38,978 bases of DNA from Xanthomonas sp. GTDB lineage: Bacteria; Pseudomonadota; Gammaproteobacteria; Xanthomonadales; Xanthomonadaceae. Location: the NCBI GenBank assembly GCA_018262705.1, contig JADFDQ010000016.1:1-38978 (forward strand). Direction: 5' to 3'. The position numbers were made by a program, and so were the translations under genes. Each line of letters starts with the position of its first letter. Positions within the stretch are counted from its first letter, which is position 1. Below, one piece after another: positions 1 to 8,207 of the stretch. The notes beneath the pieces are model-generated. The model saw only the letters and a list, made by a program, of their open reading frames with translations, ran no database searches and was not told the DNA's origin.

Positions 1-47
1 TCGGCTACCTCAGCCCGGAGCAGTACGAGCTGGCCCATGTCGCTTAG
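1..47 (+). mobile_element. IS3-family transposase (OrfB) C-terminus, cut by window edge
   Basis: The first bases read in frame from position 3 as GYLSPEQYELAHVA followed by a TAG stop at 45-47. This resembles the extreme C-terminus of IS3-family OrfB (DDE integrase), which commonly ends with a YLSP-x-(E/Q)-(F/Y)-E motif shortly before the element's right end. Only 14 residues are visible, so the subgroup cannot be set and the catalytic DDE triad lies outside the window. The inverted repeat that follows immediately (48-77) supports the call. The element interrupts the RHS gene on the opposite strand. The identification rests on a short peptide plus the terminus and is inferred. Confidence 0.68.
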
Positions 48-77
48 ATGGGTGTCCGAAGTTCAGGGGCAAGATCA
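48..77 (+). repeat. Right terminal inverted repeat of the IS3-family element
   Basis: Read from the outside inwards, the end begins TGATCTTGCCCCTGAACTTC and continues with GGACACCC. This has the 5'-TGATCTT-x-CCC...GGACAC layout known from IS3 termini. The outer tip is at 77. The three outermost bases (75-77) form the TGA that now ends the RHS reading frame on the minus strand. The left repeat and any target-site duplication lie outside the window. Confidence 0.65.
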
Positions 78-2646
78 TTTCTTGGTCTGGATCAGCTGCC
101 CGACCGCGCTGTAGCTGAAGCTGGTGGCGCCGGTGTCCGGGCTGCTCTGGCCGAGCAGGTTGCCGAGCCCGTCGTAGACATAGCTGGTGGCGTTGTTCCT
201 GGCATCGCGCACCTGCGCGACCTGGCCCAGCGCGGTGTACTGGATCAGCGTGGTGCCACCCGCCGCATCGGTGATGGCCGACACCCGGCGATGGCGGTCG
301 TGGGCATAGTGCGTGCTGTTGCCCTGCGCGTCGGTGGTCTGATCCAGATCGCCGTTGGCATCGTAGTGGTACGTCGTCACCTGCCCGTGTTCGCCCACCT
401 GCTGGCTCAGGAAGCCGCCGGTGTCGTAGACGTAGGTGGTGCGCTGGTGGAGGTCGGTGGAGTCGAACGGAATCGGGGGGCTTTGATCGCCGCCGCGTAT
501 CCCCTGAAGTGGAAACGGCATCGGGTCTATCCATCTTCCCGTATGCCGCGTGCTGCGCTCGACCGTTGTCGGCTGCGAGAGCAGGTTGTAAGTGAACGTC
601 TGTCGCTCCGTGGTCACCTCGTTGATGGTCTCCGGATCGCCGTCTTCGGAGGCATAGCTCTTGTACACCGAGATCACGCGTCCATACACGTCATAACCGG
701 TATCAACCCAGTTGCCGTCAGGCAGGGTCGCCCGCACCGGCCGTCCTTGGGTATCGTAGGTCGTCGTCGTCACCTGCGCCGCGCCGTTGACCGTGCGCGC
801 TTCGGTCAGCACCTGCCCGCGTGCGTTGTAGGTGTACTGCGTGACCGCCCCGTTGGCCGACGTCACCTTTCCCGGCTGGCCCAGCGCGTTGTAGTTGGCG
901 TAGGTCGCCGCGTGGTTCAGGCTGTTCTTCGCCGTCAGCAGGTTGCCGGCGGCATCATAGGTATAGGTGACGGCATCGCCGCTGCCGGCCAGCGGGCCGT
1001 CCACCGTCATGCTGGCGACCATGCCGTTGGGATGCAGGGTGTAGGCATAGCTGGTCGTGCGCGTGCCGACATCGCCGCCGCCCTGATTGCTGACGGTGAC
1101 GGATTGCAGCAGGCGCGCGCGGGCGTCACCGTCCGGGTAGTAGGCATAGCTGGTGGTGTTGAGCAACTGGCTGGTGCTGGCGCCGTAGACCTTGATCTGG
1201 TTCAGCCGGCCCTTGCGGGCGGCATCCCAGACGTACTCGGTGATCTGCTGCTGGTCGGCCTCGCCATTCGGGCCGATGCCGGTGGTCTTGCGGGTCAGGC
1301 GGTCGTCGGCGTCGTAGACATACTGCGTCTGCACGCCGTTCTGGTCCTGCTCCGACGTCACGTTGCCGTTGGCGTCGTAGAACGACTCGGCCATGCTGCC
1401 CGAGCAGGTCGGCGACGGCGGCCGCTCCACGCCGACGATCCGGCGCGCGCCGTCGGTCTCGCTGATGTAGTAGGTCGTGGTCTGGCCGAGGGCGTTGGTG
1501 ACTGCGGTGGTGGTGGCCGTATAAGCGAACGTGCTGCGCTCCACCCCGTTTTCCAGCCCCGACCACGCCACCCGGCCGTCGGCCTGGTAGGCATAGCGCG
1601 AATAGCGCACGCCGTTGATCGAGATGCCGGTCAACCGGCTGGCATCACGGGAATCTTCATAGTGATAGCTGCGGGTGCCCAGATTGTCCGGATAGGTGAC
1701 GCTGGCCAGATACCCTGCGCCATTGTAGGTGTACGAATACACCTTGCCGTTGGGGGCGGTAATGGCGCTGACTTTGCCGTTCGTCCACGCAAACGACAGC
1801 GTGCGCCCGGAGGTATGGGTGATCGTCGCAAGCGCACCGCTGCCGTTGTAGGCGTAGGTCAGACCGATGCCGCGTTCGTCGAGAAGCGTGAGGGGTTGCC
1901 CGGCACCGTTGAATTGCCACTGCCGTCCGTCTGGAAATTCCACACGCCAGCTTGACCCGTCCTGCACGATGCTCTTGGTTTCCGACAACCACACACCGCT
2001 CCCGGCGGGTGTGAATTTGATCGCACTTGGACCATCCGCAAGATAGATATTCGTCACCGCAGCCTGTGAGCAGGTGCGGGTGCTGGCCAAGGACCCGGCG
2101 CATTGGCTGCCGTCAGCGTATTCAAACACCAACGTGTGTTCGATGTTGCCAGACCAACCCCAGCCAAAGACGCCGGCGTGCTCTTGCGTCTTGCGATAGG
2201 TGCGAAATACTGCAAGCACGCCCGAATCCGCAGGAAGCAGGATATCCGGTTCGAACAGGAGCTTGTCGCCGGTGGGAATTGCAACCGGCCGGCCGGTTGT
2301 TTCACAAGGATCGGGCAAGGAACTTTCCTGCACCGTGCGGGCGACTTCTTCCTCGTTCTGGCCAGCGCGACCAATGCCGCCGCCCGGAAACAGGAAAGCA
2401 TCATTGAAGCCGTTGGAAGAACCTCTGCCGACAAGGCGTTCGAAATCCGAGGCGTCTGATTCCCACCGGCAATTGGTTTTGATGCCGACAACCGTACAGC
2501 CGATTGGTCTTCCTTCAGGATCCATCCGACAGACGGCCTCGCTGTCGTAATCACATACTGTGTGAATCGCCGACGCCTGCCCACTTGCCAGTGACAAGGC
2601 AAGGGTCAGCAGTACCCCCCCCCCCCGCAAATCCGTTCCAATGCAT
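75..2646 (-). pseudogene. RHS/YD-repeat secreted protein, 3'-truncated by an IS and out of frame at a G12 tract
   Basis: From about 2630 down to 78 the minus strand encodes about 850 residues of a classic RHS protein. There is a hydrophobic signal segment (VLLTLALSLASGQASA), a DUF6531-like N-terminal region (PVAIPTGDKLLFEPDILL), then many YD repeats such as YTYNGAGYLASVTYPD, YTYDAAGNLLTAKN and YVYDGLGNLLGQSS. RHS proteins are large secreted or surface proteins, often polymorphic toxins, with a conserved core followed by a variable C-terminal tip. Here the frame stops mid-repeat (SAVGQLIQTKK, then TGA) where the IS3 terminus begins, so the rest of the core and any toxin tip are lost or displaced. 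At the 5' end the best start is ATG at 2646, preceded at 7 nt by GGGGAG (2654-2659), but twelve Gs (2615-2626) put it out of frame. A TTG at 2630 is in frame without a convincing ribosome site. Eleven or fourteen Gs would restore the ATG frame and give a normal signal peptide. Confidence 0.82.
2615..2626 (-). repeat. Homopolymer tract of 12 Gs in the RHS signal-peptide region
   Basis: On the plus strand positions 2615-2626 are twelve consecutive Cs, so Gs on the coding strand. The tract lies about 18 nt after the best ATG (2646) and just before the hydrophobic core of the signal peptide. Poly-G tracts of this length slip during replication and are a known basis of contingency switching. They are also a common site of sequencing error. 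As written, the ATG frame ends at 2551 after 31 residues. Confidence 0.9.
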
Positions 2647-2939
2647 CCCGAATCTCCCCATTGAAGCCGCAGGCAAGCCCACCGCTGCGTGATTGATGAT
2701 GGGAGTTGATACCATGATTTTCTTGCAGATGAAACCCTCTGCGAACAGCTTCGGTCGCCCGACCTGCATGGCCACGGAAATCGCTGCTGCGTATGCCGCC
2801 ACGCGCCATGGTTCGCTGCCGCGGCGCAAGGGACCAGTCCGGCGCATGCGCCCGGAGCCGGGCCGGCTTGCCGCGCCGCGGTCTGCGCAGGTCTGTTAGC
2901 CTTCGGTATCCAGCGTCCGCACTGCCGAGGAAACTCCAC
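2647..2939. other. Divergent intergenic region between the RHS gene and the M2 peptidase gene
   Basis: About 290 bp separate two divergently oriented starts. The GGGGAG ribosome site (2654-2659) for the RHS start lies at the left and GAGGAAA (2927-2933) for the peptidase at the right. I see no convincing -35/-10 pair, no strong hairpin and no conserved small gene. Short open frames in both directions have no recognisable features. Confidence 0.5.
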
Positions 2940-4982
2940 ATGAATCTGCGCCCCGCCCTGCTTGCCATTGCCGTCGCCAGTTCGCTGGCCCTTGCCTCCT
3001 GCGGCGGCGGTGGCGGTCCCACCGGGGCCAGCCGTTCGTCTGGCCCGGCCAACGAAACCCCGGAGCAGTTCGTTGCCCGCGTCAATGACGAGATGCGCGA
3101 AGTCAGCACCGAACTCAATTCGGCGCAGTGGCTGTCCAACACCTACATCAACGACGACAGCGAGCTGATCGCGGCCAAGGCCAACGAGCGCTGGCTGGGC
3201 CGGCTCAACGAATGGATCGCGCAGGCCAAGCGTTTCGAAGGCAGGCAGATGTCGCCGGAGGTGGCGCGTCAGATCAAGCTGCTCAAGCTGATGACGGCGA
3301 TGCCGGCGCCGAAGGACGCCAAGGAATTGGCCGAACTCACCCGAATCGCCAGTAAGCTGGAAGGCATGTATGGCTCGGGCAAGTACTGCACCGGCGAGGG
3401 TGCCAACCAAACCTGCCGCGACATCGGCCAGCTCAGCGACGTGCTCGCCGGCAGCCGCGATTACACCGCCCAGCTCGACGCGTGGCAGGGCTGGCACACG
3501 GTCGGCGCGCCGATGCGCAACGACTACAGCCGCTTCGTGGAACTGGTGAACAAAGGCGCACGCGAAATGGGTTTCGCCAATGCCGGCGAAATGTGGCGCT
3601 CCGGCTACGACATGCCGCCTGCCGAACTTGCGCAGGAAACCGACCGTCTGTGGGATCAGGTCAAGCCGCTGTATGAACAGCTGCACTGCTACGCGCGCGG
3701 CAAGCTCGACGACAAATACGGCAAGGATAAAGGCGAAGTGTCCGGCGGCATGCTGCCCGCGCATCTGATGGGCAACCTGTGGCAACAGGACTGGACCAAT
3801 CTCTGGGACGTGCTTGCCCCGTATCCGAATGCCAGCAGCCCCGACGTCAACGCGGCGCTGCAGCGCACCGCCGAAGCCAACCTCGGCAGGGAATTGATTC
3901 GTCCCGGCACGCCCAATGCCACTGCCGCCGAACGCGGCTTCATGGCCCAGCGCGCTGCGCAGCTCGACACCGCGGTGGACATGATGCGGCGCGCGCAGGA
4001 TTTCTACACTTCGCTGGGCATGCCGACCCTGCCCGACAGCTTCTGGCACAAGACCCAGTTCATCAAACCGCTCGACCGCGACGTGATGTGCCACGCCAGC
4101 GCCTGGGACATGAACATGCGCGGCGACGTGCGCATCAAGATGTGCATCAACCCGAGCGAGGAAGACCTGACCACCATCTATCACGAGATGGGACACATCT
4201 ATTACGACCTCGCCTACAACAAGCTGCCGCCGCTGTTCCAAAACGCCGCCCACGACGGTTTCCACGAAGCCATCGGCGACACCATCGTGCTGTCGATGAC
4301 GCCGCAGTATCTTGCCTCCGTCGGTTTGATCACGCGTCCCCAGCAGAACCAGGAATCGCTGGTCAACGCGCAGATGCGGATGGCGCTGTCGAAGGTCGCC
4401 TTCCTGCCGTTTGGGTTGATGATCGACCGCTGGCGCTGGGGCGTGTTCGACGGTTCGATCACGCCCGATCACTACAACCAGGCGTGGTGGTCGCTGAAGG
4501 CGAAGTATCAGGGCGTGGCTCCGGTGACGGCGCGCGGCGAAGAGTTCTTCGATCCGGGCGCGAAGTACCACGTCCCGGCCAACACGCCCTACACCCGCTA
4601 CTTCCTCGCCAACATCCTCGAATTCCAGTTCTACAAGGCGCTGTGCGACGCCTCCGGCTTCAAGGGGCCGCTGTACGAATGCAGCTTCTACGGCAATCGC
4701 GAAGCCGGCGCGAAGTACTGGGCGATGCTTTCGCGCGGCGCCAGCCAACCGTGGCAGGCCACGCTGAAGGAGCTGACCGGCAGCGAGACGATGGACGCCG
4801 CGCCGCTGCTGGAATATTTCGCGCCGCTGCAGGGCTGGCTCAAGCAGCAGAATGCGGGCAAGACCTGCGGCTGGAATGCGGAGGGCGCGGCCGCGTCCGC
4901 CGCTCCCGCAGAAGCTGCGCCAGCGTCCGCACCGGCAACGCAAGGTGCAGGAACCGGCGGACGGGCACGGGCGCGCGGCTGA
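2940..4982 (+). CDS. M2-family peptidyl-dipeptidase (bacterial ACE homologue), lipoprotein
   Basis: This 680-residue protein belongs to the angiotensin-converting-enzyme family of zinc peptidyl-dipeptidases, which release C-terminal dipeptides. Zinc ligands and catalytic Glu are visible: HEMGH at 415-419 and the third ligand E443 within HEAIGD. The 24-residue spacing from the second histidine matches ACE. The start at 2940 is chosen because GAGGAAA precedes it and because it opens a lipoprotein signal (hydrophobic stretch ending LASC, then a Gly-rich linker), which predicts export and membrane anchoring. The last 35 or so residues are an Ala/Pro-rich low-complexity tail. Bacterial ACE homologues are known in xanthomonads; the physiological substrate is not known and is probably nutritional peptides. 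It stands alone, divergent from the RHS gene and upstream of the gcvP riboswitch. Confidence 0.93.
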   Translation: MNLRPALLAIAVASSLALASCGGGGGPTGASRSSGPANETPEQFVARVNDEMREVSTELNSAQWLSNTYINDDSELIAAKANERWLGRLNEWIAQAKRFEGRQMSPEVARQIKLLKLMTAMPAPKDAKELAELTRIASKLEGMYGSGKYCTGEGANQTCRDIGQLSDVLAGSRDYTAQLDAWQGWHTVGAPMRNDYSRFVELVNKGAREMGFANAGEMWRSGYDMPPAELAQETDRLWDQVKPLYEQLHCYARGKLDDKYGKDKGEVSGGMLPAHLMGNLWQQDWTNLWDVLAPYPNASSPDVNAALQRTAEANLGRELIRPGTPNATAAERGFMAQRAAQLDTAVDMMRRAQDFYTSLGMPTLPDSFWHKTQFIKPLDRDVMCHASAWDMNMRGDVRIKMCINPSEEDLTTIYHEMGHIYYDLAYNKLPPLFQNAAHDGFHEAIGDTIVLSMTPQYLASVGLITRPQQNQESLVNAQMRMALSKVAFLPFGLMIDRWRWGVFDGSITPDHYNQAWWSLKAKYQGVAPVTARGEEFFDPGAKYHVPANTPYTRYFLANILEFQFYKALCDASGFKGPLYECSFYGNREAGAKYWAMLSRGASQPWQATLKELTGSETMDAAPLLEYFAPLQGWLKQQNAGKTCGWNAEGAAASAAPAEAAPASAPATQGAGTGGRARARG

Positions 4983-4986
4983 GCCT

Positions 4987-5025
4987 TTTCGCGGTGCCGC
5001 GTAGAGACACTGCGGCACCGCGAAA
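4987..5025 (+). terminator. Strong hairpin after the M2 peptidase gene
   Basis: A perfect 14-bp inverted repeat (4987-5000 and 5012-5025, arms TTTCGCGGTGCCGC and its complement) with an 11-nt loop starts 5 nt after the stop codon. It lacks a trailing T run, so it may be a weak or Rho-assisted terminator, or mainly a 3'-end stabiliser. Its right arm overlaps the expected -35 region of the gcvP promoter. Confidence 0.6.
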
Positions 5026-5038
5026 GCCGCTGTATAAT
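5010..5038 (+). promoter_or_regulatory. Sigma-70 promoter for the glycine riboswitch-gcvP transcript
   Basis: A perfect TATAAT -10 box lies at 5033-5038. The hexamer 17 bp upstream (CTGCGG, 5010-5015) is a poor -35. A start about 7 nt after the -10 box would fall near 5045, immediately before the P1 stem of the first glycine aptamer (5047), so the box position agrees well with the RNA structure. Confidence 0.65.
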
Positions 5039-5046
5039 CGCCTGAC

Positions 5047-5262
5047 ATGGTGGGAGAAGCGCGCGTGTCACTGGTCACGCGACGCTGCCGAAGGCGCAAC
5101 TGCCCGGAATCGCTCAGGCTCAAGACCGCCATGGAACCACACTCTGGAGAGATCGGCGCGCGTCTGAACCACGTCCGCCGGCGCCGAAGGGGCAAGACCG
5201 CAGCGTTCGCCTTCCCTCCCCCCTTGGCGATGTGGTTCAAACTCTCAGGCAAAAGGACAGAG
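5047..5262 (+). ncRNA. Tandem glycine riboswitch upstream of gcvP
   Basis: Two successive glycine aptamers are visible. Aptamer 1 (about 5047-5132) is closed by a 7-bp P1 (ATGGTGG 5047-5053 with CCGCCAT 5126-5132) and contains GGGAGA and GCCGAAGGCGCAA. Aptamer 2 (about 5142-5262) is closed by CTCTG/CAGAG and carries the family signatures GGAGAG, GCCGAAGGGGCAA and CTCAGGCAAAAGGACAGAG. The linker between them is about 9 nt. Such riboswitches typically turn on glycine-cleavage genes when glycine is abundant, which fits gcvP starting 38 nt downstream. No clear terminator follows aptamer 2, so control may act at translation initiation; that is inference. Confidence 0.95.
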
Positions 5263-5300
5263 CGGGCATCCTTTCACGCTGCACGCGCCCGGATGCCGTC

Positions 5301-8207
<2,907 letters not shown>

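What the first reader, a model, noticed from the sequence alone, without database searches (positions are those of the whole stretch)
2604..2661. G12 tract puts the RHS start codon out of frame: possible phase-variable switch
The best start (ATG 2646, with GGGGAG 7 nt upstream) reads into twelve Gs and then falls out of frame, ending at 2551. With eleven or fourteen Gs the same ATG would run straight into VLLTLALSLASGQASA and the whole RHS protein. A homopolymer inside the signal peptide of a surface or toxin-type protein is a textbook contingency position. It is also where a base-count error is most likely.
Basis: partly seen in the sequence, partly recalled or inferred. Interest (0 to 1): 0.72.

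Follow-up and report, generated by a model that had tools for sequence, protein, structure and literature searches.

The report
G-tract splitting an RHS signal peptide
A run of twelve Gs sits between the start codon and the rest of a secreted RHS-repeat gene in a Thermomonas bacterium; related species keep such a run at the same place with other lengths, as expected of a slippage-driven on/off switch, but in this genome the gene is also cut in two by a mobile element.

Summary
Twelve Gs (minus strand, 2626-2615) lie between the ATG at 2646 and the hydrophobic core of a signal peptide; the ATG frame does not match the RHS frame. It is the only G/C run longer than 6 in the window. Relatives bear on the interpretation: four Thermomonas orthologues (G000, G019, G005, G014) carry a pure G run here, of 12, 14, 10 and 6, and all four are out of frame with a Shine-Dalgarno-preceded ATG. 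They form one group in a protein tree (91/93) although G005 and G014 are only 56% identical to G000. The sister gene in G022 has no tract and reads straight through from the corresponding ATG. G000/G019 dN/dS is 0.25 over 828 codons. This fits a contingency tract in a functional gene better than chance or decay; no reads were available to show switching. The kind is known (Neisseria pilC, Bifidobacterium pilus genes); the member appears new.

The parts
2654..2659 (-). Shine-Dalgarno-like GGGGAG
   Evidence: sequence; 20-column windows from here into the gene's start are 75-90% identical to G019, against 15-55% in alignment columns 71-260 of the intergenic region
2644..2646 (-). ATG start codon of the split leader; its 31-codon out-of-frame ORF ends at 2551
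   Evidence: the tract-less homologue in G022 starts at the corresponding ATG
2615..2626 (-). G12 homopolymer, candidate slippage tract
   Evidence: G14, G10 and G6 at the same place in G019, G005 and G014
2568..2615 (-). hydrophobic core and end of the signal peptide in the RHS frame (VLLTLALSLASGQASA; its first codon uses the last G of the tract)
   Evidence: equivalent cores in G019, G005, G014 and G022. Signal peptide judged by eye, no predictor was run
78..2567 (-). 5' half of the RHS/YD-repeat gene (830 codons)
   Evidence: PF05593 E 4e-45 and PF20148 (DUF6531) E 8e-9; 88% identical orthologue in G019
78..80 (.). 3-bp target-site duplication at the IS junction
   Evidence: the two flanks align to the G019 orthologue with a 3-bp overlap, L012rc 3994-3996
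1..77 (.). end of an IS3-type element (terminal repeat about 50-77; transposase C-terminus GYLSPEQYELAHVA* at 3-47 on +). The RHS stop at 75-77 lies inside it
   Evidence: 100% identical ends at 4 other places of the genome; rve_2 E 8e-16 for the same transposase tail in L104. The RHS 3' half is at C9:30893-29349
2940..4982 (+). divergent neighbour: M2-family peptidase; bounds the intergenic region
   Evidence: PF01401 E 9e-204

Best explanation
The G tract is a slipped-strand contingency tract in the signal-peptide coding region of a secreted RHS/YD-repeat protein. Replication slippage changes the number of Gs. In two of three length classes, translation from the SD-ATG leaves the RHS frame within the leader and no exported protein is made (off); in the third, the n-region is joined in frame to the hydrophobic core and the protein is exported (on). 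The sequenced copies of all four tract-bearing species are off. Shown: tract, start codon, frame offset, recurrence in one group of orthologues with different lengths, purifying selection on the coding part. Inferred: slippage within a population, reversibility, expression, export. In the window's own genome the switch is decoupled, because an IS element has split the gene downstream.
For: Tract and frame. Rarity. Same position in orthologues, G14/G10/G6. One group for the 4 tract-bearing genes (support 91/93; 94% of 200 bootstrap trees), with tract-less G022 beside it. Start codon: G022 homologue intact from MDWKTLPGGSLLLAA; SD-ATG-n-region conserved between G000 and G019 while alignment columns 71-260 of the intergenic region are not. 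Function kept: dN 0.065, dS 0.265, ratio 0.25 over 828 codons G000/G019; stop-to-stop frames of 1,474 and 1,463 codons without inner stops in G019 and G005, 1,388 of them from the core on in G019. GGG is a minor glycine codon here (14 of 91 in the RHS half, 3 of 58 and 8 of 75 in two neighbours), so a need for glycines would not by itself give a pure G run. mutS is present, so this is not a mutator for lack of that gene.
Against: No read data, no second strain of any of these species, no expression data. All 4 of 4 tract-bearing alleles are out of frame; random phase gives this in (2/3)^4 = 20% of cases, so it is compatible with random phase, but no 'on' allele was seen. Of 36 homologous loci printed, only these 4 show the tract (several starts not visible), so it is not a general feature of the family. 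The window's own gene is broken by an IS, and the G014 and G007 copies have a further frame break in the body of the gene. The G014 run is only 6 long. Distant pairs have higher dN/dS (0.39-0.40, dS near 1), and gene conversion between RHS genes could disturb these estimates. By eye, most of 30 other G runs read in the genus are intergenic or within ordinary glycine-coding stretches, so there is no clear genome-wide contingency system.
Confidence: 0.62

Rival explanations
1. The RHS gene is a decaying gene; the frame offset and the tract are part of that decay.
For: IS insertion in G000; frame breaks in the body of the gene in G014 and G007; all 4 tract alleles out of frame.
Against: dN/dS 0.25 between G000 and G019; long frames without inner stops in G019 and G005; pure runs of 10-14 Gs at one place in genes whose proteins are only 56% identical. 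Decay does not predict a pure run at one homologous site.
Confidence: 0.17
2. The true lengths are in frame and the assemblies have miscounted the homopolymer.
For: Homopolymers are prone to such artefacts; a paper on tracts says Illumina gives spurious indels, especially above 14 bp (PMC8808543, passages). All 4 assemblies disagree with their own ATG.
Against: Four independent assemblies would all have to err. Even if a base is wrong, a long tract at this position remains, which is what makes it slippage-prone.
Confidence: 0.1
3. The tract acts at the RNA level (transcriptional slippage), so that a fraction of the mRNAs is in frame whatever the DNA length, giving low constant expression.
For: Would explain purifying selection with every allele out of frame.
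Against: Not tested. The bacterial slippage survey seen in a search listing (PMC1088944) concerns runs of A and T; for G tracts the studied case in Bifidobacterium is replication slippage (PMC9187656, abstract and passages).
Confidence: 0.07
4. Translation starts elsewhere in the RHS frame (for example TTG at 2630), and the tract has no switching role.
For: A TTG lies in the RHS frame 18 nt upstream of the LLTLALS core in G000, and another TTG 27 nt upstream of the core in G019.
Against: These two codons are not at homologous places, lack a good Shine-Dalgarno (by eye), and are missing in G005 and G014, where the nearest in-frame ATG/GTG/TTG lies 99 and 150 nt upstream of the core. The shared unit is the SD-ATG.
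Confidence: 0.04

Closest known systems
Neisseria pilC1/pilC2 homopolymer phase variation (Jonsson et al. 1991: not held, content recalled; its citation, the statement that both pilC genes vary through tracts in the reading frame, and a table line 'G (9-20), genic, known' seen as passages of PMC5953494)
   Same: Homopolymer inside the coding sequence; a frame offset switches a surface protein. That the run lies in the signal-peptide region is recalled, not read.
   Different: Different gene (pilus-associated protein), host-adapted bacterium, switching shown by experiment.
Bifidobacterium breve sortase-pilus genes bbr_0113/bbr_1889 (PMC9187656; abstract and passages)
   Same: Sec signal and the rest of the surface protein encoded by two ORFs separated by a G tract; expression depends on replication slippage.
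   Different: Mixed lengths shown by sequencing (37% G11, 59% G12, 3% G10 at one locus); pilin, not an RHS protein; gut commensal.
RHS/YD-repeat proteins with exchangeable C-terminal tips
   Same: YD repeats, DUF6531, RHS core end, and C-termini that differ between G000 and G019.
   Different: A G tract at the N-terminus; no phase-variable RHS gene was found in the paper searches.

Membership tests
Simple-sequence contingency (phase-variable) locus | long pure repeat in coding or promoter sequence, rarer than chance | tested here: met
Simple-sequence contingency (phase-variable) locus | repeat number decides whether the start codon reads into the gene | tested here: met
Simple-sequence contingency (phase-variable) locus | tract length differs between orthologues | tested here: met
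   12, 14, 10 and 6 in 4 species; these are different species, not strains
Simple-sequence contingency (phase-variable) locus | intact gene downstream | tested here: inconclusive
   no inner stops in G019 and G005; broken by an IS in the window's genome; a further frame break in G014
Simple-sequence contingency (phase-variable) locus | length mixture within a population and reversible switching | not testable with these tools
   no reads, no same-species strains
RHS/YD-repeat protein | YD repeats over the family cut-off | tested here: met
   PF05593 151.8 bits against 22; TIGR01643 128.5 against 15.8
RHS/YD-repeat protein | RHS-associated core end with variable tip | tested here: met
   TIGR03696 68.6 against 32.5 in G019; PF03527 30.8 against 27.9 in the C9 half; tips differ
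NCBIfam RHS element core protein (NF041261 equivalog) | score over the curated cut-off | tested here: not met
   80.7 bits (window half) and 154.2 bits (G019 gene) against 2000
IS3-type insertion sequence (the interrupting element) | integrase core, imperfect terminal repeats, 3-bp target duplication (features recalled) | tested here: met
   rve_2 58.4 bits against 22 (tail of the copy in L104); TGATCTTGCCCCTG...GGACACC at both junctions; 3-bp overlap. A complete element was not read

The most novel reading that the evidence does not exclude
A clade of Thermomonas RHS genes carries an old, selectively kept G-tract switch that turns export of an RHS (polymorphic-toxin-like) protein on and off in an environmental bacterium, mostly resting in the off state. 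By the searches named in this report it would be the first RHS gene, and the first Thermomonas gene, under such control.
Probability: 0.5. Interest if true: 0.55.

Novelty: new member of a known kind. Interest (0 to 1): 0.4.

Why it matters
Contingency loci are known mainly from host-adapted pathogens and gut commensals (general knowledge). A G-tract switch kept across several species of an environmental genus, in front of an RHS gene, would suggest that bet-hedging on costly contact or competition proteins also occurs outside hosts. It also warns annotators that such genes are not simply pseudogenes because their start is out of frame.

Tried and rejected
Alternative starts in the RHS frame: not conserved. 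A genus-wide set of G-tract contingency loci: G10+ runs occur in 17 of 25 Thermomonas genomes. I read by eye the context of 30 runs other than the RHS ones (27; 3 of the own genome, two of these only G9); the runs of G012, G013, G016, G020 and G021 were not read. Many looked intergenic or within ordinary glycine codons, so no general system is claimed. One further signal-peptide case stood out (G005, L078); its gene has no match in the other 24 genomes. Promoter or terminator patterns in 2600-2960: none found. Relatives in viral contigs: 6 stretches matched a pattern, none confirmed. Named relatives in genome contigs: 2 loci, G019's record (a Thermomonas MAG) and one distant Rhodanobacteraceae hit. 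The 1,725-codon minus-strand frame 5252-75 is, upstream of the RHS part, mostly a chance open frame antisense to the M2 peptidase gene.

Limits. One search printed 36 loci on the assumption that the match begins at base 1501. This misplaces loci cut by contig ends (L109 and L115 clearly), and in L122, L125, L018, L020 and L021 the start is not visible, so 'only 4 have the tract' holds for the rows whose start could be seen. G236 was dropped from the tree (18 of 19 rows kept) because its row was cut; G007 is only 39% filled; the root is a midpoint, and the tool notes that one origin is not ruled out rather than shown. dN/dS is an NG86 estimate on aligned codons, gaps removed.

Full report
What is there. 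The window is the whole of contig C7 (38,978 bases) of a 2.49-Mb, 24-contig genome. The only close named relative found is a Thermomonas MAG, the same contig as G019's, which the tool lists in the same genus. On the minus strand an ATG at 2646, seven bases after GGGGAG, reads MHWNGFAGGGG and on in a frame other than that of the RHS part, ending at 2551. Between the ATG and the RHS part lies G12 (2626-2615). Directly after it the RHS frame gives VLLTLALSLASGQASA, a signal-peptide core (judged by eye), then 830 codons of an RHS/YD-repeat protein with DUF6531.

More than chance. The next longest G/C runs in the window are two of 6; a Markov model expects about 0.006 runs of 12 or more. The genome has only two runs of G10 or more. 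GGG is used for 14 of 91 glycines in the RHS half, so codon choice does not explain the run.

Relatives. Of the 25 genomes of the genus searched, 13 (own included) have a match to the RHS half. G019 has an 88% identical orthologue in the same setting: window 78-6000 aligns piecewise with its record L040. It carries G14 at the same place; G005 (56% identical) carries G10 and G014 (56%) G6. In all four an ATG with a purine-rich Shine-Dalgarno lies 17-28 bases upstream of the tract, and in 4 of 4 it is out of frame with the RHS part. The G022 gene (58%) has no tract: MDWKTLPGGSLLLAAMFLFAPFQAQA runs from the corresponding ATG without a break. This supports the start codon. In a tree of 18 rows the four tract-bearing genes group together with support 91/93, next to G022. 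One origin and long retention is the simplest reading, though the tree only fails to exclude it. At about one synonymous change per site between G000 and G005 (dS 1.01, near saturation), an unselected pure run would be expected to be interrupted; slippage itself can also restore purity. In the family search 178 of 296 genomes, Thermomonas included, have some match. Of 36 loci whose upstream DNA I printed, none but these four showed a G run of 6 or more just before the signal-peptide core; in at least seven the start was cut, misplaced or not visible.

Selection. G000 against G019: dN 0.065, dS 0.265, ratio 0.25 over 828 codons, 0.15-0.34 in eight overlapping windows; more distant pairs give 0.39-0.40. 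From the Shine-Dalgarno to the end of the signal peptide, 20-column windows are 75-90% identical. Alignment columns 71-260 of the intergenic region are at 15-55%, and columns 261-310, just upstream of the Shine-Dalgarno, at 55-80%. The gene has therefore probably been translated and useful for much of the time since these species parted, although each sequenced copy is out of frame at the start. A slippage switch accounts for both facts; a long-dead gene does not.

The gene in this genome is split. The RHS frame ends at 75-77, in sequence that does not belong to the gene. Bases 1-77 are the end of an IS3-type element, with the transposase C-terminus GYLSPEQYELAHVA* at 3-47 and identical ends at four other places of the genome. 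A longer copy of the tail in L104 hits the integrase core (rve_2). The rest of the RHS gene, 514 codons with RHS repeats and RHS core end, lies at C9:30893-29349 beside the other IS end. The two flanks align to the G019 gene with a 3-bp overlap, the target duplication. I compared the halves apart and did not join them. Whatever the tract does, a complete protein cannot be made from this copy as assembled.

How it most likely works. Slippage at the run changes the frame between n-region and hydrophobic core of the signal peptide, so export of the RHS protein is all or nothing. Shown: anatomy, start, recurrence, selection. Inferred: switching and export. Neisseria pilC (citation and passages seen in PMC5953494; details recalled) and the Bifidobacterium pilus genes (PMC9187656, abstract and passages) work like this. 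In the latter the Sec signal and the remainder of the pilin are two ORFs parted by a G tract, with 37% G11, 59% G12 and 3% G10 found at one locus.

Against. No reads, strains or expression data were available. All four alleles are off, which random phase gives in 20% of cases but which also fits miscounted homopolymers or decay. G014 and G007 have further frame breaks. Transcriptional slippage remains possible.

Literature. Searches for Rhs with phase variation and homopolymer (6 papers), Thermomonas with phase variation (none), YD repeat with phase variable and poly-G (none), Xanthomonadaceae with phase variation and simple sequence repeat (none), polymorphic toxin with phase variable and Rhs (4 papers) and Xanthomonas with phase variation and homopolymeric tract (3 papers) listed no title or abstract start that reports such a gene. 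Of these papers I saw passages of four: PMC13183296, PMC1574311, PMC6211672 and PMC12419801. In none of the passages is an RHS gene tied to a tract; in PMC1574311 Rhs appears in expression tables only. The others were seen as listings. Subscription papers are mostly missing from this library, so this is weak evidence of absence.

Verdict. A new member of a known kind.

Noticed in passing
L078:1900-2705 (G005:C7:81299-82104): A second signal-peptide gene with a G10 run, here at the end of the signal peptide (MTHIKQKAGLRLAVGLICVCMSTQVFGQQ), also out of frame with its 228-codon downstream part, which has no Pfam match and no match in the other 24 Thermomonas genomes.
   Followed up: partly
L040:9324-10416 (G019): A second RHS-like piece downstream of the G019 RHS gene matches the C9 half at 84%; it looks like a displaced C-terminal tip.
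   Followed up: no
L075:2350-2600 and L040:8900-9122: The C-terminal tips of the G000 and G019 RHS proteins differ after the shared RHS core end.
   Followed up: no
window 2660-2700 (-), alignment columns 261-300 of A1: A stretch just upstream of the Shine-Dalgarno (around ATCATCAATCACGC) is 60-80% identical to G019 inside an otherwise diverged intergenic region; possibly the promoter, though no sigma-70-like site was found.
   Followed up: no
G012 and G020: 3301 and 122 matches to G10; in G012 the listed ones come from very long G runs. Probably assembly artefacts of those records.
   Followed up: no
L092:1989-2006 (G019:C10:290388-290405): A G18 run near a contig end followed by very G/C-rich low-complexity sequence.
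   Followed up: no
L015 and L024 (G014, G007): RHS genes with a break between two overlapping frames in the body of the gene.
   Followed up: no
G000:C20:6165-6175, C11:84668-84676, C1:77822-77830: The other three G9+ runs of this genome; none was shown to be a switch.
   Followed up: partly
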